Part shown: piece after piece, positions 1 through 27,727 of the stretch
Numbering within the stretch: the first letter of the stretch is position 1
Layout of the letters: every line of letters starts with the position of its first letter
Assembly (NCBI GenBank): GCA_030266245.1
Contig: JAJDHP010000009.1
Coordinates: forward strand, 1 to 33,523
Reading direction: 5' to 3'
Origin: Methanimicrococcus sp. OttesenSCG-928-J09
GTDB lineage: Archaea; Halobacteriota; Methanosarcinia; Methanosarcinales; Methanosarcinaceae
Length of the DNA: 33,523 nt
The notes under the pieces: model-generated
The model's database searches: none
Seen by the model: the letters and a program-made list of their open reading frames with translations, nothing else
Told to the model about the DNA's origin: nothing
Translations under genes and position numbers: made by a program

Positions 1-240
1 GCAACAGTAACCTGACTCCAAGTGGCAACAGTAACCTGACTCCAAGTGGCAACAGTAACCTGACTCCAAGTGGCAACAGTAACCTGACTCCAAGTGGCAA
101 CAGTAACCTGACTCCAAGTGGCAACAGTAACCTGACTCCAAGTGGCAACAGTAACCTGACTCCAAGTGGCAACAGTAACCTGACTCCAAGTGGCAACAGC
201 AATCTGACTCCAAGTGGCAACAGTAACCTGACTCCAAGTG
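1..240 (+). repeat. 24-bp tandem array, 10 copies, cut by left edge
   Basis: Ten head-to-tail 24-bp units fill the first 240 bases with no spacers. Each contains the core CTGACTCCAAGTGG. Nine are identical and the ninth (193-216) differs at two positions. The array continues off the left edge. The same 24-bp family recurs in reverse orientation at 12482-12698 and in the same orientation at 22345-22416. Because 24 is a multiple of three, several frames stay open, including an octapeptide NSNLTPSG frame on the plus strand. The context looks non-coding: a motif shared with other arrays follows directly. Confidence 0.95.
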
Positions 241-467
241 GAAATTATTTTTGCATGGGCAGGTGCATATAATAAAAAAGAAATGAAATGCAGTAACCGA
301 TACCATCAAAATAATTACATTCCATACAGCAATTAATTGCTGCGTTTGGCAGGTACATATTATTAGAGTATAATAAAATGAAAAAAGCGACATCAATTTT
401 GCCGTTTATTCTTTTGGAAAAATGATGCAGCTCGCACGCGAACGAGCCGCCAAAAAAGTAAAATAAA
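241..467. other. Non-coding gap left of ppa with the GCATGGGCAGG motif
   Basis: Directly after the 24-bp array, at about 248-280, lies TTTTGCATGGGCAGGTGCAT followed by an A-rich run. The same sequence follows the 26-bp array at 27728-27760, and reverse-strand variants lie at 15654-15675 and 15854-15876. A weaker second copy (GGCAGGTACATAT) lies at 349-361. No gene is seen here. The segment is the 3' flank of ppa, but no clear intrinsic terminator hairpin is visible. Confidence 0.6.
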
Positions 468-1007
468 TTATTGCTGTCCTTCGAATTTCAGTTTATACTT
501 TTCAATGCAAGAGGAAATAATTTCTTTTGCTTCCGCTGCCCCTGAAACGTTTTCAATCACTGTTTCTTTGCCTTCAAGCGCTTTGTAAACTTCAAAGAAA
601 TGCATCATTTCGTCAGCGACATGTTTTGGCAGGTCCTGAATTTCTTTATAATTGTTGTACATCGGATCGCCGAAAGGAAGCGCAATGATTTTTTCATCCA
701 GAGCGCCGCCGTCAATCATTGTGATGACGCCGATTGGGAAACAGGAAACGATTGACAGCGGTTCAAGCTCTTCACTGCAAAGAACTAAAACATCAAGCGG
801 ATCGTTGTCATCGGCATATGTGCGCGGAATAAAACCGTAATTTGCCGGATAGTGCGTGGATGTGTAAAGAACGCGGTCCATCATCAGGAGACCCGTTTCT
901 TTATCCAGTTCGTATTTGATTTTTCCGCCTTTCGGAATTTCGATACAGGCGAAAAAGTTATCCGGCTGTATTCGATCTGCCGGAAAATCATGCCAAATAT
1001 TTTTCAT
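468..1007 (-). CDS. ppa: Inorganic pyrophosphatase (family I, soluble)
   Basis: Hydrolyses pyrophosphate to two phosphates in the cytoplasm, pulling PPi-releasing biosynthetic reactions forward (ArgG in this window is one). The 179-residue length is normal for prokaryotic family I enzymes. The family signature D-N-D-P-L-D-V is visible at residues 67-73, whose aspartates bind the catalytic metals. The conserved N-terminal part with EIPKGGKIKYE (23-33) and the HYPANYGFIP segment (52-61) are also present. The ATG at 1005-1007 is preceded by GGAGG with a 7-nt spacer, so the start is well supported. The helicase gene ends about 70 bp upstream on the same strand. The two could be co-transcribed, but nothing suggests a functional link. 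Confidence 0.97.
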   Translation of the reverse strand: MKNIWHDFPADRIQPDNFFACIEIPKGGKIKYELDKETGLLMMDRVLYTSTHYPANYGFIPRTYADDNDPLDVLVLCSEELEPLSIVSCFPIGVITMIDGGALDEKIIALPFGDPMYNNYKEIQDLPKHVADEMMHFFEVYKALEGKETVIENVSGAAEAKEIISSCIEKYKLKFEGQQ

Positions 1008-1078: not shown

Positions 1079-4000
1079 TTATTCGTCTAAGTAAATTTTG
1101 CCGTTGGGCAAGTGAACAATTTTACCTTCTGCAACAGCTTTGTTAATCACTTCATCTATTTGTGCTTTGACCGCCGGTCTCATAATTTTAAATCCGAAAA
1201 TTTGGGACACGCGTTTTGTCAGCTGCTCCTGCGGTGTTGAATATTGTGTCTTTAAAACATAAACAACAGCCTGAAGGATTTCTTCATCCGAAATCCAGTC
1301 GATGTTGAGCAAATCGCCCGTTCTCTTTCTGACAATGCAGCCTCTGACTTTGGCCGGCCACAAGAAATTGCCGCGGACGCGGATGTAATTGGATTTTTCC
1401 GCCGAAGAAATCTCACGGATAATCATATCGCGCATCGCTTTTGTCAATCGCTTAACATCGCAGCGCTGTTTTATTTCTAAAATCAGCTGCTCCTTGTGAA
1501 TCGGACCTTCATGCGCGACGATTTCAACAATTTCATGTTCCATCTTGTGACGCGGAATTTCCAGCAAGTTTTCAGTTGACGGCAAATCAATTTTTGAATA
1601 AGGCGCATAATCCGGAACACCGCCCTGAATCAGAGGTTCGACATTGAACAGTTTCTCATCGGTAATATCATCCGGCAGTTTTCTAATATCGCTGAACGGA
1701 TCATCATAATCTTCATCGGAATCGTCAAAGTCTTCATCATCAAGAGTGATGTCGTCATCCAAATTCGAAGCATCGGCTTCTTTTTCAGATTCATCCTTCT
1801 CAATAACTTTTTCTTTTTTCTGTTTTTCCGCTTTCGGCTTTTCCGGACGATATTCAACAATTTCCTCTTCGGGCTGCTCAACATTTTCCTCTTCAGGCTG
1901 CTCAGCAATTCCTTCCTCAGATTTTATGGTTTCTTCTTCCGGTTTGATGACTTCCTCTTCCGGTTTAATTTCTTCTTCAACCGTTTCATTAACTTCCGTT
2001 TCTTCAGCGAGGTCGGATGTTTTTTCTTCTTCCTCTTTTATTTCCTCAATCGGCTCAACGATTTCTTCTTCAATTGCCGGTGCGGATTCTTCAATTGTTT
2101 CAATGATTTCTTCTTCCTCAGCAACTTCGTTGGAAACTTCCGCTTCCTGTTCCGGTTCAGATGAGCTTAAAACTTCAACCGGCTCTTCGTCTGCGCTTTC
2201 CGCTTCTTCAATATCTGAAACAATCGCTTCGGTTTCTTCTTTCTCATCATCAGAAACGGTTTCAGCATCTTCTTTTGCCGATGCTGCTGTCGCTGCTTCA
2301 ACTGCTGCTGCCTCAGATTCAGCTTGTGCTTTCTTCTGTCTGCGGCTTTCCGCTTCTCTTTCATTGATAATTTGAATCATTTTTTCGATTTCTTTTTCAT
2401 CCGTCACCGTAACAGTGACTTCTTCGTCATCGAATTCAAATTCAACGGGTGCTTCAATCTTTTTGGCATTTTCCTTGGCTTTTGCAATCGCATCAAGCAA
2501 GTTTTTGCGTGCTTTCTGCGGATTCAAATACCAATCGGTTGACCATACACGGTACAACTGCCAGCCGAGTCCGGCCAGAACGCCGTGTCTTAAACGGTCG
2601 CGGTCGCGGGCAACACGAGATGTGAAATATTGGGGACCATCACATTCAATACCGATAATATAGTGGCCGGGAACTTCTTCGTTCACAATCGCCATATCCA
2701 TCTTGTAGCCGGCGCAGCCGATTTTCTGATGAATCATAAAGCCGTTTTCCCTCAGGAATGTGGCGACTGATTCGTCAAAAGTCACTTCGTCCGGTTCATA
2801 TTCCGGCATCTTACTGATAATTTCTTTCGTTTCAGCATATTCTAAGAATGATTTTAAAACACGAAGACCGGCAGGATCGTCATCGGTGACGTGGAGGTCG
2901 ATTGCTTTAAAGTTTGAAAAGATAACACATTTCTCTCTGGCACGCGTGAACAAAACATTTAAACGGCGTTCGCCGCCGTCTCTGTTGAGCGGGCCGAAGT
3001 TTTTAGATAAACGTCCTTCTTGATCGAAACCGAAACCGATACTGACGAAAATAACATCTCTCTCGTCACCCTGAATCGTTTCGATATTTTTAACCATGAA
3101 ATTTTCACCGTTTTCGTTGGTGAAATACTTTTCAAAGCCGGGACTGCTTTTAACAAGCTCTTCCACTTCTTTTTGAATCGCTTCCTGCTGCTTCACGTTA
3201 AATGTTCCGACCATGAGCGTTTTATCCGGGAACTGAATGAAGTGGCGCATCACTTCCTGAGCGACAACACGTGCTTCTTCACGGTTCACACCGGTCTTAC
3301 CGCGTTCATAAACAGAATCTTTAACATGTCTGAATCGAAGACCCATATTTTTGTCTTCGTGAAGCGGCGATGGATAAACATACAAATGGTTGCCGTAGAA
3401 TTCATTGTTGGAAACGGCAATTAATGATTCGTGACGGCTTCTGTAGTGCCAGCGCAGCGTTTTGTACGGGAAACTGCGCTTACAGATATTGAGAACACTT
3501 TCCACATCAGAATAAAAAGAGGCGTCTTCATTATATTCGTCATCCGCTTCCAATAAATTTTCAAAGAACGTTGTCGGCGGAAGCTGCTTCGAGTCGCCCA
3601 TCACAACAACCTGACGGCCTCTGAGAAGTGCGCCGAGTGCATCTTCCGGTCTGACCTGACTGGCTTCGTCAAAAATAACGACATCGAATGAAGTGTGCTG
3701 CGGTTCTAAGTACTGCGCAATCGAAAGCGAGCTCATCATAAAGCACGGTTTGATTTTCTGAATCAGTCCGCCCGCACTTGACATCAAGCGGCGGATCGGC
3801 ATGTGTGCTTTTTTCTTGTTGAATTCATTGAGGAGAACGCCTGCTTCTGATTCGCGGGACGCGCCGACATAAATCTGCGGCATACGCTTATAAATTTCAA
3901 CATTGACGCGCTCTCTGTTTTTGGTAATCACTTTTTCATCTAATTCCGCGAATTTCTGAATCTTGTTTTCATGGACTTCTTTGATGAAAGTTGAAAGCAC

Positions 4001-6727
4001 ACGCTTTTTCATAAATTCTGCTCGCAGAACGCCGTCGGCATAGTTGCCCTTAAATGTTTGAATCAAATCTTCAGGCAAAACTTCATTCTCATTGATATAC
4101 GGAACCATCGGCGCCGCCACAGTTTCTGAACATTTCTCGCGGTAAAGCAGGAACTGACTCCATAAAACAAGTGACGGAAGTTCTGTATTCCAAACATGAA
4201 GGATGTTGCTGAGCTGCTTTGCTGAAAGCGTGTCGCGGAAAACATTGCCGGTTGCAATCAGTTCATACTTTTTCTTTTCCGGCACTTTCATTGCGTCTTC
4301 GGCGTCGTTGGGCTCTTCCACTTTGATTAAGCCGCCGTCCTCTTCTAAGTTTTCGGGAGCGGCAATCTCTATTTTCGACTCTTCCTGTTTCGGCGGAATC
4401 AGGCGGACGCTCTTTTCATTGAAGAATAAATCGGGATCGGCACCGACACTGTTTGACAGTTTGATGAGCGCGACATCTAAATATTCTTTTTCCGCTTTGA
4501 TATTTTCAACGGCGGTTTCCAATGCTGCTCCGTTAATGCCTTTTTCAATACAGACGTAGGTTTCTTCCGTTACACTGCCGCCGCTTTCCAAGACATCGAA
4601 AAGAACAATCCAGTCATAAAACGCTTCTAAACGGGCAGGATCGGCAAGACCGGCTTCCCAGTGGGCGCCGAATAAAAGAATTGCTTTTTGCTTGGAATTT
4701 TCTAATTCGCGTTCCAAATCATTGAATTCCTGAACAAGCTGAACATCTTTTTTGATGTCAGCATCGCTTTTATCGGTGCGTTTGATGTAGCAGTTTTGAA
4801 TGCGGTTTTTGGAATCCTTAAAGCCGCTGTCCATGAATTTCAGGAGCTTACCGGCTTTTTTAAGATAAGCGTCAATATCTTCTTCAAAAATCTGAGAAGT
4901 GAATATTTCTTCAATCTGCTGCTCCAGTTCGCTGTAGCGGCGAGCTTTTTTCATCAGCTCTTTTTGTGTGCTGCGTTCTTTGACACTTTGGTTTTTCAGC
5001 ACATCACAGCTGATTTTAGGTGCTGTTTTGAATGTATCTATATTTTCAATAAATGAGTCCAATTCATTCAATGAAGCCGGTGCTTTTAATCCTGTTTCTG
5101 AAACGATTGTTTCCACGCTTTCGCTGATGATTTGTGCGCGGCGGGAGACATCTTCTAATATTCTTTCAATATCCTGTAAATCGGGCGGTAAAATGATTCC
5201 GGGCTGTACATCCCGCCACGGATTTTCTTTAACGCCGCCGACGCCTGGCAGTGCATCTCCAATCTTTTCCAATATGGATACTGCTTCTGCCCACTGCTTT
5301 CTGTCCCACTTCTCGGGACTGTAAAATTCAATATGTGCCATCTTTCTTTTGTTCATGTTGAAATAATGGCTGACATCTTCGCGCATTCCGTAAATATCGT
5401 AAACAGTGTAGCCGATCGGTCCGATTGTTTGGCTGAGTGTTTTAGCGTATTCGTTGAGTTCATATTTGAGGTTTTCAAGTTCCGCTAAATCCTGCGCATA
5501 GTTTTTCTCTGCCGGTGGCTGGCGTTTCAATGTTCTTTCGAGCTCGTCTAAAATTGCTTTTTTCTGCGCTTTATGACTGTGCATTTCAAGAACCATGTCG
5601 CCAAGACCGATTGCATCCAGTCTCTTTTTAACGACCTGAAGCGCGGCCATCTTTTCACTGACGAACAAAACGCTTTTGCCGCTCATGAGAAGTTCGGCGA
5701 TGAGGTTTGTAATTGTTTGGGATTTTCCGGTTCCCGGTGGTCCTTCGACGACTAAATTTTTGCCGGATTTGACATCTTCAATGACTGATATTTGAGATGA
5801 GTCGGCATTGACAATGTGATAAACGGAATCGGTGCTGAGTTTTAAGTCAACTTCGTTTTCGGCAAAACCGCCGTCGTAATTTTCGTCGGACGGGTTGAAA
5901 ACCTGATTAATCAGCGGGTGTGTTTCGGGACCGTGTCCTTCGGGCCAGATTTTCGGATCAAGGTCTTTATACATGACGAATTTTTTGAAGTTGTAGAAGT
6001 CGATGTTTGCTTCGCGAACAATTTCCCATTCTTTTTTATCGGAAATCAGGTCTTCGACGGCTTTGAGATAAAATTCGACGGCGCCTTTATCGTCCGCGCC
6101 GAAAAATTCGGGGAGTTCCAATCCGAATTCTAAAAGTTTGGCTTTAAGTGTGATGGACGCGAAAATTTCATCGCCGGTCCATTGAACAGTAAATCTTCTT
6201 TTCGGACCGACACGTTTGAATTCGACCGGAATCAAAATCAGGGGGGCTTTAAAGAATTTCTTGGAACCGTCGGTCCATTTTAAGAAACCGACTGCCAAAT
6301 ATAATATCGGATAACCCTGTTCTTCAAAAACGGCAAGGGATTGGTTGTTTGTATAGAATAAACGCTCTTCCAATTCATCGGCATGGTAAGGTGTTTCAAC
6401 GCCGACAGATGCGCTTTCTTTTCCTTCTTTTTTCTTCATCAATCCTTTTAAGAAACCGGATTCTTCATCATCATCGGCTGCGGCAGCATCTATTGCATCC
6501 GTTTCCTCAGCAGTTCCTTTTTTTGTTTTCTTCAAAGCGTTCGGATCCGCTTTGAAACGCATTGTTTTTTCCTGAACAACCAAAATATCGTAAATTTCGG
6601 CGATATTTTCATTTTTAATTTCCACCGTCCTCTTTTTTGACGGCGTGTAATTTAAGAGATTGTTGTTCAAAGATAAGTCCAAAAGTTTTTGTCTGAGGAG
6701 TTCAAGTTCTATTTTAACGTCTACCAT
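1079..6727 (-). CDS. Large DUF4011-type SF1 helicase with C-terminal PD-(D/E)XK nuclease and DUF3320 domain
   Basis: An 1,882-residue multidomain protein. The N-terminal 250 or so residues match the DUF4011 type. The SF1 (UPF1-like, AAA_11/AAA_12) helicase core is split: Walker A GPPGTGKS is at 329-336, DEAS at 1020-1023, and a motif VI-like segment (RRLNVLFTRAR) at 1254-1264. About 690 mostly charged, probably helical residues lie between Walker A and DEAS. A Vsr/MTES_1575-like nuclease follows, with D1344, IECDG at 1360-1364, an RDRDRLR segment, then LGW and STDW. Next comes a strongly acidic linker (about 1467-1680) and a C-terminal DUF3320-like domain (about 1728-1882). Proteins of this architecture were reported as single-gene phage-defence candidates (Hhe, as I recall); that role is inference here. 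The ATG has GGAAGG with an 8-nt spacer. No other defence gene is adjacent. Confidence 0.9.
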   Translation of the reverse strand: MVDVKIELELLRQKLLDLSLNNNLLNYTPSKKRTVEIKNENIAEIYDILVVQEKTMRFKADPNALKKTKKGTAEETDAIDAAAADDDEESGFLKGLMKKKEGKESASVGVETPYHADELEERLFYTNNQSLAVFEEQGYPILYLAVGFLKWTDGSKKFFKAPLILIPVEFKRVGPKRRFTVQWTGDEIFASITLKAKLLEFGLELPEFFGADDKGAVEFYLKAVEDLISDKKEWEIVREANIDFYNFKKFVMYKDLDPKIWPEGHGPETHPLINQVFNPSDENYDGGFAENEVDLKLSTDSVYHIVNADSSQISVIEDVKSGKNLVVEGPPGTGKSQTITNLIAELLMSGKSVLFVSEKMAALQVVKKRLDAIGLGDMVLEMHSHKAQKKAILDELERTLKRQPPAEKNYAQDLAELENLKYELNEYAKTLSQTIGPIGYTVYDIYGMREDVSHYFNMNKRKMAHIEFYSPEKWDRKQWAEAVSILEKIGDALPGVGGVKENPWRDVQPGIILPPDLQDIERILEDVSRRAQIISESVETIVSETGLKAPASLNELDSFIENIDTFKTAPKISCDVLKNQSVKERSTQKELMKKARRYSELEQQIEEIFTSQIFEEDIDAYLKKAGKLLKFMDSGFKDSKNRIQNCYIKRTDKSDADIKKDVQLVQEFNDLERELENSKQKAILLFGAHWEAGLADPARLEAFYDWIVLFDVLESGGSVTEETYVCIEKGINGAALETAVENIKAEKEYLDVALIKLSNSVGADPDLFFNEKSVRLIPPKQEESKIEIAAPENLEEDGGLIKVEEPNDAEDAMKVPEKKKYELIATGNVFRDTLSAKQLSNILHVWNTELPSLVLWSQFLLYREKCSETVAAPMVPYINENEVLPEDLIQTFKGNYADGVLRAEFMKKRVLSTFIKEVHENKIQKFAELDEKVITKNRERVNVEIYKRMPQIYVGASRESEAGVLLNEFNKKKAHMPIRRLMSSAGGLIQKIKPCFMMSSLSIAQYLEPQHTSFDVVIFDEASQVRPEDALGALLRGRQVVVMGDSKQLPPTTFFENLLEADDEYNEDASFYSDVESVLNICKRSFPYKTLRWHYRSRHESLIAVSNNEFYGNHLYVYPSPLHEDKNMGLRFRHVKDSVYERGKTGVNREEARVVAQEVMRHFIQFPDKTLMVGTFNVKQQEAIQKEVEELVKSSPGFEKYFTNENGENFMVKNIETIQGDERDVIFVSIGFGFDQEGRLSKNFGPLNRDGGERRLNVLFTRAREKCVIFSNFKAIDLHVTDDDPAGLRVLKSFLEYAETKEIISKMPEYEPDEVTFDESVATFLRENGFMIHQKIGCAGYKMDMAIVNEEVPGHYIIGIECDGPQYFTSRVARDRDRLRHGVLAGLGWQLYRVWSTDWYLNPQKARKNLLDAIAKAKENAKKIEAPVEFEFDDEEVTVTVTDEKEIEKMIQIINEREAESRRQKKAQAESEAAAVEAATAASAKEDAETVSDDEKEETEAIVSDIEEAESADEEPVEVLSSSEPEQEAEVSNEVAEEEEIIETIEESAPAIEEEIVEPIEEIKEEEEKTSDLAEETEVNETVEEEIKPEEEVIKPEEETIKSEEGIAEQPEEENVEQPEEEIVEYRPEKPKAEKQKKEKVIEKDESEKEADASNLDDDITLDDEDFDDSDEDYDDPFSDIRKLPDDITDEKLFNVEPLIQGGVPDYAPYSKIDLPSTENLLEIPRHKMEHEIVEIVAHEGPIHKEQLILEIKQRCDVKRLTKAMRDMIIREISSAEKSNYIRVRGNFLWPAKVRGCIVRKRTGDLLNIDWISDEEILQAVVYVLKTQYSTPQEQLTKRVSQIFGFKIMRPAVKAQIDEVINKAVAEGKIVHLPNGKIYLDE

Positions 6728-6891
6728 GAATGATACCTTCCGAATGAAGACTGTTAATTGTTGCTAATGCGTCTTTGCATCTGCCGACGACTATTTTTAA
6801 AATTCGTGAAACGTGTTTTCCGGTTCGTTTCTGTTTTTTAAATGATTTCGTTACAATATTATTTTAAGAATAAAAGAATAGAGGGATGCTT

Positions 6892-6900
6892 CTATATAAG
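6892..6900 (-). promoter_or_regulatory. Possible TATA box for the helicase gene
   Basis: On the minus strand the sequence reads CTTATATAG, close to the archaeal TATA consensus. It lies about 165 bp before the helicase ATG, which would give a leader of roughly 140 nt. No second gene lies between, so it is the best visible promoter candidate, but the region is AT-rich and chance matches are likely. Confidence 0.35.
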
Positions 6901-6960
6901 GTTTATTTCTAAAACCCTTGACGGGGAAAACAAATATTTTTTTAAAATCTGATAAAAACG

Positions 6961-7144
6961 AAACATCGTTTTTCATTTATTTGATAAAAACCGAACTCCC
7001 CTTTTTCTTTTTTAAAATAAAATGAAAGCGGAGTTCGTTTTTGAGTGATTTCGATAAATCGATGTTTAATTTTCTTACAAGAATGAAGCCCCCCTCCAAA
7101 CTTTTAATTCCGTGAACGTTAGTGAGCGGAATTAAAATTTGGAG
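6961..7144 (+). repeat. Twin stem-loop element, copy a
   Basis: The first part is a nested palindrome at 6961-7067: outer arms AAACATCG and CGATGTTT, inner arms with CGAACTCC and GGAGTTCG. After 26 bp comes a second hairpin at 7094-7144 whose arms begin CTCCAAA and end TTTGGAG, with one bulged base and a stem near 18 bp. The same order and spacing is seen at 15355-15550, and in reverse at 7407-7594 and 27828-28023. Confidence 0.85.
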
Positions 7145-7157
7145 AGGTTATTAATAT

Positions 7158-7278
7158 ATTCCAACTTAATGAAAATTGAATTAACTAATTCCAACTTAAT
7201 GAAAATCGAATTAACTAATTCCAACTTAATGAAAAATCGAATTAACTAATTCCAATTTAATGAAAATCAAATTAGAAA
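7158..7278 (+). repeat. Four 30-bp AT-rich direct repeats
   Basis: Four consecutive units start at 7158, 7188, 7218 and 7249. Each contains ATTCCAACTTAATGAAAA or a close variant. The third unit has one extra A and the fourth is the most diverged. They lie between two oppositely oriented twin stem-loop elements. A shorter A-rich repeat built on ACAAACTTAAAAA follows at about 7279-7325. Confidence 0.9.
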
Positions 7279-7406
7279 ACAACTTAAAAAACAAACTTAA
7301 AAAACAAACTTAAAAAACAAATTAAAAACTTTCAGAAAAATTAAATGTGATAATTCAATAATGTACGGTTTCTTGCTTTCTTTTTATTTTGATATTTTAA
7401 TAACCT

Positions 7407-7594
7407 CTCAAATTTTGAATTCGACCATCGCTTCGCGCCGTCCGAATTCCAAAATTTGAGTGGGGTTTGCCGTCATTCTTTAAAATTTAAACATCGGTTT
7501 TATGATTTTGAAAAAAACAAACGCCCTCTTTTCTTTTTATAATGAAATGAAAAACGGCGTTTGGTTTTTATGACTTTTTTAAAAAACGATGTTT
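7407..7594 (-). repeat. Twin stem-loop element, copy b, overlapping the nnr stop codon
   Basis: Reverse-oriented version of copy a. A hairpin at 7407-7460 has arms CTCAAATTTTGAATTCG and CGAATTCCAAAATTTGAG, with one bulged base. After 28 bp comes a nested palindrome at 7489-7594 with outer arms AAACATCG and CGATGTTT. The inner arms read AAACGCC and GGCGTTT, so they are diverged from the other copies but still pair. The outer arm ends inside the nnr stop codon (7593-7595), so the structure would form right at the end of the nnr message. Confidence 0.8.
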
Positions 7595-9272
7595 ATTTTT
7601 TCACAGATTGATTTGAAAAGACAAATGGCAGTTTCTCCAAAATATCTGAAGGAATCAGCGAATCACCTTTTTCTGAATAAGCAGCATCACCTGCTTTGCC
7701 GCAAAGATAAGCACCGCATCCTGCTGCCGCTGCCGCACTGTTTGCTGCCAGCAGCCCGCCGACAATGCCGGCCAGCACATCACCTGTTCCACCGACAGAC
7801 ATTCCCGCGTTTCCGGTAGCATTGTATCGTGTTTTTTCGACAGCGCCGTTTGAAATTAAATCTTCGGGTCCTTTCAAAAGAACAGTAACGCCAAACTTTT
7901 GACTGATTTCCGAGACCGCAGCTTCAAGAACTTCGGCTGCAACATCTTTTCGCTTCGGCTGTAAAGAAATTCCCAAATATTCAGCTGCTCTCAAAAGTTC
8001 CTGATAATGGGGCGTAATAATGATTTCAACATTCTCGTCAGCAGAATTTTGCTCCTGTTCTTTATTTTGGTTCTGCGTCCAATCTTGTTTTTGTATAAGC
8101 GCTTCAAATATTTCGGGTCGAAGGGCGTCGGCATCAATGACCGCTTTTTTGAAGACCGGAACTAATTGAGCCGCCGTTTTTAGGGAAGAAGGGTCGCGAC
8201 CGAGTCCCGGACCGATAATAACAGTATCATGTGATAAAATAAGTTCTTTCAATAACGGTATATCATTTTCCGACAAAACATCTCCTGAAAGTTTCCGGAC
8301 AATGAATTCAGGCGCATAAGACGCAATCGGTTTGTAAATGCTGCTCGGCGCCGCAATGGTGACAATATCGCAGCCTGCACGAAGCGCACCTGCTCCTGCC
8401 AGCGCGGGCGCACCTGAATACGGACCGCCGGCAATAACTAATATTTTGCCGCTGTCGCCTTTTTTGCTGTCAGCTGTACGCTTGTATAATAAAGAAACAT
8501 CTCCCGGACCGATATATTTCTCAGCGTTTTCAGGAATTCCGATTGGGCGGACATAAATTTTTCCGATATTTTCAGTACTGCTGCCTTCAAGCCAAGTTTT
8601 CATTTTATGAAAAGTAATTACGGCATCAGCTTTGATGACTGATTCCTTATTGTTTTCAGTTTTGTTTTTAGTTGAAGTAATTTGATTGGGAGCCGCCGGC
8701 AGCATTCCCGACGGAACATCAACGGCAAGAACAAAAAGATCCTTCTTCATTTCTTTTTCATGATTGATTAAATCAATCGCTGCTTTTTCAATTCCTTTCG
8801 GCTTTCCTGAAAAACCGGTTCCGAATATTCCATCAACGATAACGGCAGCATTTTCGATGGTTTGAAAAATCTCAGCCAAATCCGATTCGCTTTTAATTTC
8901 AAAAACGGATACAAGACTTGTTTGTTTTAAAAGTTTGAAATTCAATTGCGATTCGCTTGTCTTGATTTGATTTTCTCTGCCGAGCAGAAGAACGGCGGAT
9001 CGAATGCCGGCGCAGGCTAAATGACGGGCCGCAACAAAAGTATCACCGCCGTTGTTTCCAAGTCCCGCGATAAATAAAACAACAGGCGAATCCTCTGATG
9101 TGGTTGGTTTTGAAGTGATTTCATTGATTCTTTCAGCAGCAATTTCAGCGACTGCCGCACCGGCATTTTCCATAAGCTGCAGCGGACTCATTCCGAGACC
9201 TACGGCATTCATATCAATCGCTTTCATTTCATTGGCTGTAATGGTTTTTTGTCTCATTGAATACCGGCTCAT
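7593..9272 (-). CDS. nnr: Bifunctional NAD(P)H-hydrate repair enzyme (epimerase and ADP-dependent dehydratase)
   Basis: Repairs hydrated NADH and NADPH: the N-terminal YjeF_N domain interconverts the R and S epimers and the C-terminal ribokinase-like domain dehydrates the S form using ADP. Residues 1 to about 230 hold the epimerase, with an NNGGD motif near 72-76 and VDGIFGTGFSGKPKG and VDVPSG further on. Residues from about 255 hold the dehydratase, with GGPYSGAPALAG, IGPGLGRD, VIDADALRPE and the catalytic GGTGDVLAG (D498). The 559-residue length fits full fusion proteins. NNGGD is followed by T rather than the usual G. The start is uncertain: ATG at 9270-9272 and an ATG five codons later both lack a strong ribosome-binding site. 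The downstream end touches a palindromic element. Confidence 0.93.
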   Translation of the reverse strand: MSRYSMRQKTITANEMKAIDMNAVGLGMSPLQLMENAGAAVAEIAAERINEITSKPTTSEDSPVVLFIAGLGNNGGDTFVAARHLACAGIRSAVLLLGRENQIKTSESQLNFKLLKQTSLVSVFEIKSESDLAEIFQTIENAAVIVDGIFGTGFSGKPKGIEKAAIDLINHEKEMKKDLFVLAVDVPSGMLPAAPNQITSTKNKTENNKESVIKADAVITFHKMKTWLEGSSTENIGKIYVRPIGIPENAEKYIGPGDVSLLYKRTADSKKGDSGKILVIAGGPYSGAPALAGAGALRAGCDIVTIAAPSSIYKPIASYAPEFIVRKLSGDVLSENDIPLLKELILSHDTVIIGPGLGRDPSSLKTAAQLVPVFKKAVIDADALRPEIFEALIQKQDWTQNQNKEQEQNSADENVEIIITPHYQELLRAAEYLGISLQPKRKDVAAEVLEAAVSEISQKFGVTVLLKGPEDLISNGAVEKTRYNATGNAGMSVGGTGDVLAGIVGGLLAANSAAAAAGCGAYLCGKAGDAAYSEKGDSLIPSDILEKLPFVFSNQSVKK

Positions 9273-12425: not shown

Positions 12426-12481
12426 CTTATTATTTTATAAAACTTATTTTCTCTAATCTTATCATTGGGAATCAGTTTTCC

Positions 12482-12698
12482 GTTTCCATATTAGTTGAGG
12501 TGTTTGTTTCCACTTGGAGTCTGTTTTCCGTTTCCATGTTGGTTGAGGTGTTTGTTTCCACTTTGAGTCTGTTTTCCGTTTTCCATGTCGGTTGAGGTGT
12601 TTGTTTCCATTTGGAGTCAGGTTTCTGTTTCCATATGGGTTGGGGTGTTTGTTTCCACTTGGAGTCTGTTTTCTGTTTCCATATGGGTTGAGGTGTTT
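12482..12698 (-). repeat. 24-bp satellite, nine units in alternating types
   Basis: Nine consecutive units all begin GTTTCCA (one has an extra T, giving 25 bp). Two types alternate: one with TTGAGGTGTTT and one with CTTGGAGTCTG, giving a 48-bp higher-order period. The second type is the reverse complement of the unit at 1-240. The unit at 12603-12626 carries GGAGTCAGGTTTCT and is intermediate between the two. A degenerate half unit precedes the array at about 12464. Confidence 0.9.
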
Positions 12699-15550: not shown

Positions 15551-15653
15551 TATATTATTCAATGAAATTGTAAGTAATTTTCTAATTTAATCCATATTGG
15601 ATTCATAGTTGTGATTCTTGATGCTGTTTATAGGTACCATTTGTTTTATTAAA

Positions 15654-16010
15654 TGTACTTACCCATGCAAAACTAATTACACAGCTACCTTACCGCGACC
15701 GTTACGGTCTGCTGCTACTGCCACCTACTGCTGTCACTCACTCTGCTAGCCTGCTGTCACTACTGCTTACTTCCGGCAGTCTGTGCACGTGTTCTGCACC
15801 ATTTTTACAAAATTATCAAAAAGGCGATATGATTTCTCATTTCTTTTTTTATTACATTTACCTGCCCACGCAAAACTAATTGCCACAGCTACCTTACCGC
15901 TACCGTTACAGTCTGCTGCTGCCGCCTACTCTGTCATTCACTCTGCTAGTCTGCTGTCACTACTGCTTACTGTCGGCAGCCTGCGCGCGCGAACTGCACC
16001 GGTTTAACAA
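15654..16010 (-). repeat. Two tandem copies of a ~202-bp unit with GCA-rich tail
   Basis: Both copies contain, in plus-strand reading, CCCATGCAAAACTAATT or CCCACGCAAAACTAATT, then CAGCTACCTTACCGC, then a CTG/CTA-rich tail with CTGCTGTCACTACTGCTTAC. The corresponding points are 15663 and 15865, so the period is about 202 bp. On the minus strand this reads as GCA-rich DNA leading into the GCATGGGCAGG-type motif, the order seen beside the 26-bp array at 27281-27760. Confidence 0.8.
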
Positions 16011-16053
16011 AAAATAAGAAAAATCGCCTCTGATTTTTCAATTTTAAAAAAGA

Positions 16054-19354: not shown

Positions 19355-20734
19355 TCAGCCGACATAAGTTATCAGCTTTCCATGTCTGTAAATTGAAATC
19401 GGTCCGTCATCCGAAACTTTAACGGCAATGCCGTAAATGCTGGCATTCCAGGCGGCTGTGCTTCTTGCGCCCGGCAGAACTTCCAAATTCTTAAGACCGT
19501 GTTCATTCAGACGGATTTCATCGGGCTCGCCGATCATACAGGACACATCCAATACTTCGCCGTTCTTGGAAATGACGACTGCGCCATCTACTTTGGCGGC
19601 AGCCATTATTATTTTGCGATGAATTTTATGAGTTACATTCAATCCCTTGACAGTGTTTCGGAGGGTTTCGTTCACTCTTTCACTTTGACAGTAATCGGGA
19701 ATAATTTCATCTAAAATTTCTTCGTTTTCCGGAATAAAAATAAGCGTTCCTTTCCGTTCGTAAGATAAATCCAGAACCAATCTCAATATGGAAAGCGCGA
19801 TGTGTTTTTCAACAAATTTGGAAAGCGTAATGTGAATCGTAGAATAATTAACGTAATGCCACTTGCCTTGTGTTTTATGGAAAAGTGTTCTTTTCGGAAG
19901 AATCACATAAATGCTTCCGTTTTCGGAAGTCATCATGATAAACGTTTTCGGCGGCATTCTGGCAATCAAAGGAATCAAATCTTCATGAGGCGCCAGCAAT
20001 GTATTTTGTTCAATTTCCTCTTCCGTTAATGTCGGTTCAGGCATCGTAAACATACCGAAAATGTCGCCGTTTTCACCGTAACCCGCAATTCCGACTGTGT
20101 TTTCGCTCATGGAACCGCGAATCCATTTTTCTTCCATAATTCCTTTTTCAAACGGAACCGGCTGCGTGAAAGGCATAAAACTGTCCGAAAGCGTCTGCAG
20201 AATACATTCTTTCTTTTTCGCCATCAGCATACAGAATGTAAACGGTTTATTTTCATATTGAAGATGCGTGCTGTTTTCGGCAATCTGAAGCCATTTGATC
20301 ATCGGATTCGTGCTGAATGAAGAAAACTTAGCGATCGCGCGGCTGAATTGACTTTGCTTCAAGGTCATCCAAACTTCAGAATGTTTCTCTTGAACCGGAA
20401 TAATCGTAATATCGTCATTAAAAACCTGGCAAAAATGATCGCCGAATATCAAATCAATTTCCTGAACCTCATTTAAAAGTGAAATAAAATAACCGGCGGC
20501 GACTTTCTTTTCAGGTCCGCTTTGATATAAAACAGAAATCAATCCGTTTCGACCGGCGCTCCAAAAAAGATGAACCGTTTCTTTATTGCCGAATATTTCA
20601 AGCTCATTCCGAATTTCATCTGCCGTCAGCGTTTGAACACTTTCAATCGGAAAAATATATTTTAACGAAGTGATGAGCTCGGCCTTTGTTTCTTCACTTT
20701 CAAATCTTTGCATATAATTGGAAAATAATCTCAT
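19355..20734 (-). CDS. DAC (DisA_N) domain protein with unrecognised N-terminal region
   Basis: A 459-residue protein whose last 150 residues or so match the diadenylate cyclase (DisA_N) fold: LDLSYERKGTLIFIPE, then VDGAVVISKNGEVL with an intact DGA at 383-385, then LPGARSTAAW and ISIYRHGK near the end. The second catalytic motif, normally R-H-R, reads R424-S425-T426, so phosphate contacts expected for catalysis are changed. Residues 1 to about 300 show no domain I can name. It could be an inactive or altered DAC, a c-di-AMP or nucleotide sensor, or one half of a heteromeric enzyme. It is transcribed divergently from a DacZ-type gene, with 463 bp between. The ATG lacks a strong ribosome-binding site. 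Confidence 0.75.
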   Translation of the reverse strand: MRLFSNYMQRFESEETKAELITSLKYIFPIESVQTLTADEIRNELEIFGNKETVHLFWSAGRNGLISVLYQSGPEKKVAAGYFISLLNEVQEIDLIFGDHFCQVFNDDITIIPVQEKHSEVWMTLKQSQFSRAIAKFSSFSTNPMIKWLQIAENSTHLQYENKPFTFCMLMAKKKECILQTLSDSFMPFTQPVPFEKGIMEEKWIRGSMSENTVGIAGYGENGDIFGMFTMPEPTLTEEEIEQNTLLAPHEDLIPLIARMPPKTFIMMTSENGSIYVILPKRTLFHKTQGKWHYVNYSTIHITLSKFVEKHIALSILRLVLDLSYERKGTLIFIPENEEILDEIIPDYCQSERVNETLRNTVKGLNVTHKIHRKIIMAAAKVDGAVVISKNGEVLDVSCMIGEPDEIRLNEHGLKNLEVLPGARSTAAWNASIYGIAVKVSDDGPISIYRHGKLITYVG

Positions 20735-21043: not shown

Positions 21044-21184
21044 AAGAAAATTGCTTTTAAAATATATAGAGCAAAATTCTGATTAAATCTGTAATTTAAA
21101 TGCTGAAATATAAGACAGCAAAAAACAAACAAATATGATTCTAGTTTTGAACATTTGCTTTTCACAGAATTAAAAGTCATTTTT

Positions 21185-21190
21185 GGTGAT
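21185..21190 (+). promoter_or_regulatory. Ribosome-binding site setting the dacZ-type start
   Basis: GGTGAT stands 7 nt before the ATG at 21198 and overlaps the in-frame TTG and GTG codons just upstream, so the ATG is the likely start. Confidence 0.7.
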
Positions 21191-21197
21191 TGACAAA

Positions 21198-22175
21198 ATG
21201 GATGAAATAACGGATATATCGGAAATAAAAACAAATGTGGAAACTCCGATTTTTAATGCTTCCGCCTCTGACGATCTTTGCGGCATCCTGTTAAAAGATA
21301 CGGTCGTTCATATCGCAAAGCTGATGGGAGCCGTGGCTGTCTTTACTTTTGGAAACATCGACACCAAAACCTTCAGAGACTTAGATGTTCCCGTTATTGA
21401 TATCACCCAAATTAAAACAATTATTGAAAAGTTAACGTATTTGAAAAACGAAGATCAATCTCAGCTTCGCGAAATTTCTGACGCCATTCGAAATGAGGCT
21501 GACAAAAACGCGTCTCTTCTGATGAGCGCCGCTGCTGTAGAATACAGTTTGGGAACAATTGACTGCGGCATTGTCATCGGTTTGATTCGTACTCAGGACT
21601 CATATTCGCTTGTCGTTCACAGCATGGAAGAAAATGAGACGGTTCAAGTGGTTCGCGAATGTGAAAAGCGCGTCACGCCCGAAACATTCAGAAGCGCACT
21701 TCATTTATCTTTGAATATCGCAATGAAGGGCCGCGAAGGCAAAAAAGTAGGCACCGCTTTCATCCTCGGCGACGAAGAAGAAGTTTTGGAAAGATCACAT
21801 CAAATGATTATCAACCCGTTCCGCGGTCAGGATCCCAATTTCGAAGTCAATATTAACAAGAAAGAAAATTGGGAAACAGTCATGGGATTTGCCCAGCTCG
21901 ACGGCGTGTTCATCATATCAGAATCCGGCAAAATTCTCTCAGCCGGCCGCTATTTAGACGTAGATACACGCGACGTTCATATTGAAAAAGGACTCGGCAC
22001 CCGTCACCTCTCATCCGCCTCCATCACCAGAGATACAAATGCAATCGCGATTGCCGTTTCAGAATCAGGCGGAACAATTCGCGTTTACATGGACGGCAAA
22101 GAAGTCATTTATGTAGAGCCGAACGCATCGCTTGTTCAAGTTGACGGCCAGAATGTGGCAAGCCGATCTTTTTAA
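21198..22175 (+). CDS. dacZ: DacZ-type diadenylate cyclase
   Basis: A 325-residue protein with the layout of archaeal DacZ, which makes c-di-AMP from two ATP. The N-terminal 150 residues form an alpha/beta domain rich in valine and isoleucine (VFTFGN, DVPVIDITQ), as in DacZ proteins. The DAC domain runs from about 165 to 310: LHLSLNIAMKGREGKKVGTAF, LDGVFIISESGKIL with DGV at 235-237, and GLGTRHLSSASIT with RHL at 269-271. Canonical motifs are DGA and RHR, so both are altered by one residue. V for A is mild, but L for the second arginine may affect phosphate binding. It is divergent from another DAC-domain gene and ends in a clear terminator-like hairpin. Confidence 0.85.
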   Translation: MDEITDISEIKTNVETPIFNASASDDLCGILLKDTVVHIAKLMGAVAVFTFGNIDTKTFRDLDVPVIDITQIKTIIEKLTYLKNEDQSQLREISDAIRNEADKNASLLMSAAAVEYSLGTIDCGIVIGLIRTQDSYSLVVHSMEENETVQVVRECEKRVTPETFRSALHLSLNIAMKGREGKKVGTAFILGDEEEVLERSHQMIINPFRGQDPNFEVNINKKENWETVMGFAQLDGVFIISESGKILSAGRYLDVDTRDVHIEKGLGTRHLSSASITRDTNAIAIAVSESGGTIRVYMDGKEVIYVEPNASLVQVDGQNVASRSF

Positions 22176-22344: not shown

Positions 22345-22416
22345 AAACTAAAAACAGACTCCAAGTGGGAACTAAAAACAGACTCCAAGCGGAAAATTAA
22401 ACCTGACACCAAATGG
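22345..22416 (+). repeat. Three 24-bp satellite units
   Basis: Units at 22345-22368, 22369-22392 and 22393-22416 end in CCAAGTGG, CCAAGCGG and CCAAATGG. They are in exact 24-bp phase and carry CAGACTCC or CTGACACC, related to the left-edge array. A degenerate reverse copy of the GCATGGGCAGG-type motif (CCCACTGCAAAACTA) lies just before them at 22336-22350. Confidence 0.85.
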
Positions 22417-27056: not shown

Positions 27057-27280
27057 TTCATTTTTTCTTTTTCTCATTTTCTCTTTTCAATTTCTCTTTT
27101 CATTTTCTCTTTTCATTTGTCTCATTTCCTTTTTCTTTTTTTCATTTTTTCTATTTAATTTCCGTTTTCTCACGTTTCTTTTCTCCTTTCTCGATTCTAT
27201 GAAAAACAGGATTCGGTGTTGGAGAAATCAATAAAATTGCGGCAGTTATAATGGCGGGGGCAGCAGGCGTAAGCAGTAGC

Positions 27281-27698
27281 GGCAACAGCAGATAGCAAGC
27301 TGTAACGGCAACAGCAGATAGCAAGCTGTAACGGCAACAGCAGATAGCAAGCTGTAACGGCAACAGCAGATAGCAAGCTGTAACGGCAACAGCAGATAGC
27401 AAGCTGTAATGGCAACAGCAGATAGCAAGCTGTAACGGCAACAGCAGATAGCAAGCAGTAGCGGCAACAGCAGATAGCAAGCTGTAACGGCAACAGCAGA
27501 TAGCAAGCTGTAACGGCAACAGCAGATAGCAAGCTGTAACGGCAACAGCAGATAGCAAGCTGTAACGGCAACAGCAGATAGCAAGCTGTAATAGCAACGG
27601 CAGGTGGCAAGCTGTAACAGCAACGGCAGGCAGTAAGTTGTAACAGCAACGGTAGAGGTAGCAGTCTGTAACGGCAACGGCAGGTAGCAAATTGTAAC
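27281..27698 (+). repeat. 26-bp tandem array, 12 regular units plus 4 degenerate
   Basis: Twelve 26-bp units run from 27281 to 27592, each with GGCAACAGCAGATAGCAAGC. They are identical except for AAT instead of AAC ends (27385-27410 and 27567-27592) and one variant with GCAGTAGC (27437-27462). Four decaying units follow to 27698, one of them 28 bp long. The period is not a multiple of three, so the open reverse frames read the same peptide in rotating frames and are not genes. The array leads into a GGTAAGGTAGCTGTGG segment shared with 15654-16010. Confidence 0.95.
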
Positions 27699-27727
27699 GG
27701 TTGCGGTAAGGTAGCTGTGGTAATTAG

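What the first reader, a model, noticed from the sequence alone, without database searches (positions are those of the whole stretch)
1079..6727. Hhe-like helicase-nuclease standing alone among housekeeping genes
The DUF4011, split SF1 helicase, Vsr-like nuclease and DUF3320 order matches a class reported as single-gene anti-phage systems. Here it lies between ppa and nnr with no other defence gene, and next to a repeat-rich region that may have helped it arrive or change.
Basis: partly seen in the sequence, partly recalled or inferred. Interest (0 to 1): 0.5.

Follow-up and report, generated by a model that had tools for sequence, protein, structure and literature searches.

The report
Ancient core helicase-nuclease of methanogens
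A gut methanogen carries one very large protein that joins a nucleic-acid motor to a DNA-cutting enzyme; it resembles bacterial anti-virus proteins, but this lineage seems to have passed it down and kept its working parts almost unchanged for a long time, rather than gaining it recently.

Summary
The gene is real: 1079-6727(-), 1882 aa, with DUF4011, a split SF1B (Upf1/Dna2-like) helicase, a Vsr-like EDxHD nuclease, a long disordered linker and what look like two winged helices (DUF3320 region). The host is a Methanimicrococcus MAG. It is not Hhe by curated test (921 bits, cut-off 2000); PADLOC's best match is the candidate PDC-S37 (1572 bits). It did not arrive recently: all 6 Methanimicrococcus species searched have it, its tree matches rfcS, its helicase core changes no faster than rfcS, and a 45-bp promoter-like block is kept (40-42 of 45) in all five others. 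The Methanosarcina-Methanimicrococcus clade has it in 39 of 44 genomes, other genera of the family in 5 of 67; in Methanosarcina it sits mostly at one locus among housekeeping genes. The nearby repeats are a genome-wide family. Two distant relatives sit in BREX and Wadjet loci and others on plasmids, so a defence origin is credible. New points: a defence-type protein inherited as a core gene, and a clade-specific long linker (421-681 residues after the nuclease; 232-255 in 32 of 34 complete homologs outside the clade). Its role, immunity or genome maintenance, is untested.

The parts
1079..6727 (-). whole gene, DUF4011 helicase-nuclease, 1882 aa (PDC-S37 / ProA-like)
6863..6909 (-). conserved promoter-like block with archaeal TATA-like CTTATATAG
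   Evidence: 40-42 of 45 bases kept in 5 of 5 other Methanimicrococcus; no second convincing copy in the 57.7% complete own genome (next E 0.009). TATA reading is recalled knowledge
6134..6688 (-). DUF4011 (residues 14-198)
   Evidence: Pfam; weak alignment of residues 1-399 with Upf1-like helicases (Z 4.5-6.0), not above unrelated rows
5720..5743 (-). Walker A GPPGTGKS (residues 329-336)
3953..5512 (-). mostly helical insert between helicase motifs I and II (residues 406-925)
   Evidence: model; equivalence to the Upf1 1C domain is inference
3656..3673 (-). Walker B / motif II FDEASQ (residues 1019-1024)
   Evidence: invariant in 77 homologs
2912..3472 (-). second RecA domain, AAA_12 (residues 1086-1272), Upf1/Dna2/Sen1/Aquarius-like
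2486..2779 (-). EDxHD / Vsr-like nuclease MTES_1575 (residues 1317-1414)
   Evidence: Pfam; I-Bth0305I catalytic domain Z 12.7 over 97 residues
1628..2410 (-). long acidic linker (residues 1440-1700; 39% D+E), predicted disordered
1355..1564 (-). probable winged helix 1, DUF3320 region (residues 1722-1791)
   Evidence: Pfam marginal; my reading of the helix and strand order of the model
1088..1288 (-). probable winged helix 2 (residues 1814-1880)
   Evidence: my reading of the model
468..1007 (-). ppa, inorganic pyrophosphatase, co-directional and 71 bp downstream; neighbour shared by 3 of 6 species

Best explanation
It is a vertically inherited core gene for a single-protein nucleic-acid surveillance and cutting machine of the PDC-S37 / ProA-like DUF4011 group, most likely a standing innate restriction factor. 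Shown by computation: gene, domains, intact catalytic motifs, vertical inheritance in Methanimicrococcus, a stable locus in Methanosarcina, strong purifying selection, a conserved promoter-like block. Inferred: the C-terminal winged helices and the DUF4011 part bind DNA with an unusual feature (free end, single-stranded gap, fork of a replicating virus or plasmid); the SF1B motor moves along one strand (5'-3' by analogy with Upf1/Dna2) using ATP; the EDxHD nuclease then cuts. The long linker may hold nuclease and DNA-binding parts off the host's own DNA until engaged. The gene was probably a mobile defence gene that became fixed before Methanosarcina and Methanimicrococcus split.
For: Profiles: PDC-S37 1572 bits, Hhe 667; ProA 1255. 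Relatives in defence loci: Methanoperedens L042, behind a PglX end, a PDC-S02 gene, PglZ and BrxL; Methanolobus psychrotolerans L055, followed by JetA, JetB, JetC, JetD of Wadjet. 351 of 72,556 plasmid records carry a relative, all below 60% identity, some named hhe. Motifs intact. SF1B fold, nuclease fold Z 12.7. Vertical status: 6 of 6 Methanimicrococcus and 39 of 44 in the wider clade against 5 of 67 elsewhere in the family; trees agree; dN/dS of helicase 926-1272 0.029-0.044 over five pairs against, for the window-M. blatticola pair, 0.055 for rfcS and 0.24 for nnr. Not strictly essential: no DUF4011 in G075 and G076, apparently split in G083, which fits a conditional function.
Against: No defence neighbours where it is vertical: 3 PADLOC families (4 protein hits) at E 1e-15 among 86 neighbours. 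Clear defence systems were identified at 2 of the 20 other loci scanned; 4 of 10 large neighbours checked singly had no hit. A stable locus and slow core are unusual for arms-race genes. Frequency alone proves nothing: type I restriction HSDR_N is in 38 of 44 clade genomes and 28 of 30 Methanosarcina, as often as this gene, so the case rests on tree and locus. A DUF4011 gene is a core flanking gene in every P. aeruginosa isolate (PMC10250203, section 17 read) with no defence role tested in what I read. Most PDCs are unvalidated (PMC12988326, passages read). No expression, virus or enzyme data.
Confidence: 0.5

Rival explanations
1. Domesticated genome-maintenance enzyme: a Dna2-like helicase-nuclease that processes stalled forks, flaps or recombination intermediates of the host; the defence kinship is ancestral only.
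For: Vertical status and housekeeping neighbourhood; helicase core more conserved than rfcS; Dna2 is the top Foldseek match; present in all six Methanimicrococcus genomes where Cas1 is found in 2 of 6 and HSDR_N in 3 of 6, all genomes incomplete; conserved promoter-like block.
Against: No DUF4011 in the near-complete Methanosarcina genome G076 or in G075; absent in 62 of 67 other genomes of the family, so not a general repair need; relatives in BREX and Wadjet loci.
Confidence: 0.3
2. Recently acquired Hhe-type defence gene brought or altered by the adjacent repeats.
For: Domain order; repeat-rich 6937-7602; stand-alone position; repeats also lie before the gene in L032.
Against: 6 of 6 species have it with an rfcS-like tree; Hhe cut-off missed by more than half; repeats are genome-wide and not found before the gene in L033-L036; the promoter-like block is shared by all six; GC and codon use within the range of other window genes.
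Confidence: 0.03
3. RNA-directed role: a Sen1/Upf1-like translocase that surveys viral or aberrant transcripts, the nuclease cutting R-loops or DNA at transcription sites.
For: Aquarius, Upf1, Sen1, Senataxin and Ighmbp2 are among the nearest helicase folds.
Against: The nuclease is of a DNA-endonuclease fold (I-Bth0305I); tandem winged helices usually bind DNA (recalled).
Confidence: 0.1

Closest known systems
PDC-S37 (PADLOC phage defence candidate, single gene)
   Same: best PADLOC profile, 1572 bits
   Different: untested as far as I could find: 0 papers of the held library name PDC-S37
ProA (NCBIfam NF058533, anti-phage protein ProA)
   Same: profile aligned from residue 8 to 1511, 1255 bits
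   Different: below cut-off 1500; match starts at model position 360 of 1903; 5 of 5 relatives tested also miss the cut-off
Hhe (Gao et al. 2020, recalled; NCBIfam NF042953)
   Same: DUF4011, split SF1 helicase, Vsr-like nuclease
   Different: 921 of 2000 bits; best-matched stretch ends at residue 1464, before the DUF3320 part
DUF4011 core gene flanking P. aeruginosa cDHS1 (PMC10250203, section 17 read)
   Same: a DUF4011 gene that is core, not an accessory defence gene
   Different: there it borders a large defence hotspot; no sequence comparison was made here
Dna2 / Upf1 / Ighmbp2 SF1B helicases
   Same: helicase motifs and fold
   Different: C-terminal EDxHD nuclease and a very large helical insert here

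Membership tests
Hhe | over curated NCBIfam equivalog cut-off (2000 bits) | tested here: not met
   921.5 bits
Hhe | DUF4011, SF1 helicase, Vsr-like nuclease in this order | tested here: met
Hhe | anti-phage activity | not testable with these tools
   no experiment
PDC-S37 | best and strong PADLOC profile match | tested here: met
   1571.6 bits, next Hhe 667.1; PADLOC's own cut-off is not shown by the tool
PDC-S37 | linkage to defence loci | tested here: inconclusive
   yes at 2 of 20 other loci scanned, no clear system in the vertical clade
ProA | over NCBIfam cut-off (1500 bits) | tested here: not met
   1255.2
SF1B Upf1/Dna2-like helicase | helicase motifs and fold | tested here: met
SF1B Upf1/Dna2-like helicase | 5'-3' translocation | not testable with these tools
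   inferred by analogy
EDxHD / MTES_1575 nuclease | profile cut-off, fold and acidic residues | tested here: met
   107.5 bits (cut-off 38.2); Z 12.7 to I-Bth0305I; D1344, E1361, D1363
DUF3320 | over Pfam cut-off (25) | tested here: inconclusive
   24.9 bits

The most novel reading that the evidence does not exclude
A mobile anti-virus helicase-nuclease was domesticated at the base of the Methanosarcina-Methanimicrococcus clade, gained a disordered linker some 200-400 residues longer than in its relatives, which in Methanimicrococcus turned acidic and acts as a built-in DNA mimic restraining nuclease and winged helices, came under a conserved promoter there, and now serves as core immunity or fork surveillance even in gut genomes where CRISPR-Cas and type I restriction are patchy.
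Probability: 0.25. Interest if true: 0.65.

Novelty: new variant of a known kind. Interest (0 to 1): 0.42.

Why it matters
Single-gene candidates such as PDCs are among the commonest predicted defences of archaea but mostly untested (PMC12988326, passages). This one behaves as a core gene in genera with cultured members, including Methanosarcina (genetic tools recalled), so its role can be tested directly. It also warns that a defence-profile hit need not mean a mobile, accessory gene.

Tried and rejected
Recent arrival through repeats: rejected, though the repeats also occur before the gene in L032. Odd composition: GC 0.435, GC3 0.446; codon distance 0.083 against 0.051 expected by sampling, an excess of 0.032 where the other 16 window genes run from -0.008 to 0.065. 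Empty site in the genus: none, six of six have the gene. Empty site in G075/G076: the pdaD side was found, the tat side not within the stretches fetched, so no empty site shown. RNA families: none in the window at gathering score. Same promoter block before 11 homologs outside the genus (10 Methanosarcina-type, 1 Methanofrustulum): best 22-26 of 45, chance level. Defence genes in the variable interval behind the Methanosarcina gene: among 37 proteins scanned with six from L042 and L055, the strong hits that I traced belong to L042 and L055, six large interval proteins checked singly have none at 1e-30, and the one interval protein shown has only weak RT-nitrilase models; one search lists 25 of 56 families, so this is not exhaustive. 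Single gain of the long linker: not resolved; the long-linker rows form one branch at support 50 only, and joining the short-linker Methanosarcina paralogs to either group is not rejected (AU p 0.74 and 0.82). Foldseek on the N-terminal half: no match at E 0.001; in the second look Upf1-like rows (Z 4.5-6.0) do not stand above unrelated helical rows (best Z 6.4), so DUF4011 as stalk/1B is a hint only. ProA: one search listed 20 of 60 papers; I saw titles and abstract starts, none of which defines it.

Limits: neighbour scans took 89 of 222 listed ORFs from 20 of 22 loci (other lineages) and 86 of 214 from 15 of 20 loci (vertical clade); Methanosarcina loci repeat the same genes, so that set is about seven independent neighbourhoods; the 133 PADLOC families in the other set are inflated by redundant models and only 25 were listed. 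dS is near or above 1, so ratios are rough, and control genes were measured on one pair. Trees are 'quick' ones. Methanimicrococcus genomes are incomplete. Promoter controls: for closer pairs some control genes reach 39-44 of 45.

Full report
What is there. The window belongs to a Methanimicrococcus MAG (1.375 Mb, 88 contigs, 57.7% complete). The ORF at 1079-6727(-) encodes 1882 residues. Pfam gives DUF4011, a split SF1 helicase, an MTES_1575 nuclease and a marginal DUF3320. AlphaFold models of residues 926-1882 (mean pLDDT 66; linker near 32) and 1-925 (pLDDT 80) show an SF1B motor, a nuclease close to I-Bth0305I (Z 12.7), a disordered stretch, and two C-terminal units that I read as winged helices. 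Residues 1-399 align weakly with Ighmbp2 and Upf1 (Z 4.5-6.0), no better than unrelated rows; that DUF4011 is the stalk/1B part and the helical insert an enlarged 1C is inference.

What family. PADLOC: PDC-S37 1572 bits, Hhe 667. NCBIfam: ProA 1255 (cut-off 1500), Hhe 921 (cut-off 2000). Five relatives, from blatticola to Poribacteria, also miss both cut-offs. So it is a relative of Hhe and ProA, best filed with PDC-S37, not a member of Hhe.

Inheritance. In the family 44 of 111 genomes have the gene. By genus code (recount): Methanimicrococcus (g1) 6 of 6, g7 2 of 2, g5 4 of 4, Methanosarcina (g13) 27 of 30, g4 0 of 2: 39 of 44; the other genera 5 of 67. A DUF4011 search finds 28 of 30 in g13, the extra one (G094) being the start of the gene at a contig end. 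rfcS is in 107 of 111. Control against over-reading: HSDR_N of type I restriction is in 38 of 44 of the same clade and 54 of 67 elsewhere, Cas1 in 25 of 30 Methanosarcina, so frequency alone does not show vertical descent. The trees do: rfcS groups g1, g7 and the Methanosarcina-like genera (39 rows, SH-aLRT 99), and inside Methanimicrococcus both trees give ((G013,G011),(G014,(window,G010,G012))), the last three unresolved in the gene tree. Sequences of other lineages (Methanolobus, Methanococcoides, Methanoperedens, Planctomycetota, Poribacteria) intermix, as expected of transfer.

Locus. In Methanosarcina and g5 the gene lies between tatA/tatC/EamA-like genes and pdaD: 25 of 27 distinct loci listed (28 rows, one genome twice) have tatC or EamA among the upstream ORFs, and pdaD follows within the fetched stretch in 17 of 28 rows; these gene names are my reading of the proteins printed. 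Of the two exceptions one (L117) keeps the pdaD side and the other (L093, G093) is the short-linker paralog type. G089 and G090 hold the gene elsewhere; G098 and G100 were not fetched. In Methanimicrococcus ppa is next in 3 of 6 (window, L032, L036), an aldo-keto-reductase-like gene is shared by L034 and L036, another gene by L033 and L035; nnr is adjacent only in the window.

Constraint. Identity to the window within the genus: helicase parts 89-98%, nuclease 83-94%, DUF4011 77-86%, helical insert 69-86%, linker 36-51%; rfcS 87-91%; nnr 54-63% in four species. dN/dS: helicase 926-1272 0.029-0.044, nuclease 0.043-0.122 (five pairs); rfcS 0.055, dacZ 0.079, ppa 0.083, methyltransferase 0.139, nnr 0.238 (one pair).

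Linker. Residues after the nuclease W1399 number 421-681 in 34 proteins: 6 of 6 Methanimicrococcus, Methanofrustulum L037, 26 Methanosarcina-type main-clade proteins, and divergent L088, whose place in the tree is unsure. In 32 other complete homologs, Methanosarcina paralogs L040, L050 and L097 included, the number is 232-255; L072 and L075 (Methanocorpusculum) have 334-336 and L115 (the split G083 gene) 315; eight truncated rows, main-clade L051 among them, were left out. The stretch is acidic in Methanimicrococcus (27-35% D+E), less so in Methanosarcina (15-26%), and mixed-charge in Methanofrustulum. One or more gains cannot be told apart.

Promoter. A 45-bp block before the gene is kept at 40-42 of 45 in 5 of 5 relatives; with the two most distant species control genes give 23-35 of 45, while for closer pairs some controls reach 39-44. 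No second convincing copy was found in the incomplete genome.

Defence links. L042 (Methanoperedens) has the end of PglX, a PDC-S02 gene, PglZ and BrxL on the same strand just before the homolog; L055 (Methanolobus psychrotolerans) has JetA, JetB, JetC and JetD just behind it. These are 2 of 20 loci scanned; three neighbours in that set match UvrD-like GajB models, which are generic. Among 86 neighbours in the vertical clade only mad3 (2 proteins), LmuB (1) and an effector model (1) reached 1e-15. 351 of 72,556 plasmid records and 1 of 50,697 phage records carry a relative.

Literature. In the two Methanimicrococcus genome papers held (PMC9723798, PMC11362671) word searches of the main text found no 'helicase', 'defense' or 'CRISPR'. 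Three papers of the library name DUF4011.

Reading. The evidence fits a defence-type helicase-nuclease that became a core gene. Whether it still defends is open; its absence from G075/G076 and the split in G083 fit a conditional, not essential, role.

Noticed in passing
window 6961-7067 and 7489-7594: Two hairpin-like ~107-bp elements with ends AAACATCG/CGATGTTT, part of a dispersed family (52 matches of the whole 6728-7592 stretch in the genome, self included); MITE-like.
   Followed up: partly
window 7075-7478: About 400-bp region bounded by imperfect inverted repeats, each itself a hairpin, with 30-bp and 13-bp tandem repeats inside.
   Followed up: no
window 1-241, 12468-12698, 15644-16012, 27271-27700: 24-, 48-, ~200- and 26-bp tandem arrays; a GACTCCAAG-containing unit recurs at 22346-22412.
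   Followed up: no
G083 C1:3958789-3963408 and C1:2357391-2357966: The C-terminal DUF3320 part lies about 1.6 Mb away on the other strand: the gene looks split inside the linker by a rearrangement.
   Followed up: no
L092, L108, L109, L112, L115 downstream of the homolog: The interval between the homolog and pdaD varies in Methanosarcina, recalling the P. aeruginosa hotspot flanked by a DUF4011 gene; no clear defence gene was traced there.
   Followed up: partly
window 19355-20734 and 21183-22175: Two divergent genes with DAC (diadenylate cyclase) similarity side by side, beside rfcS.
   Followed up: no
L088 (G027): Divergent 2380-aa homolog with a DSDVYDPASG-type repeated linker.
   Followed up: no
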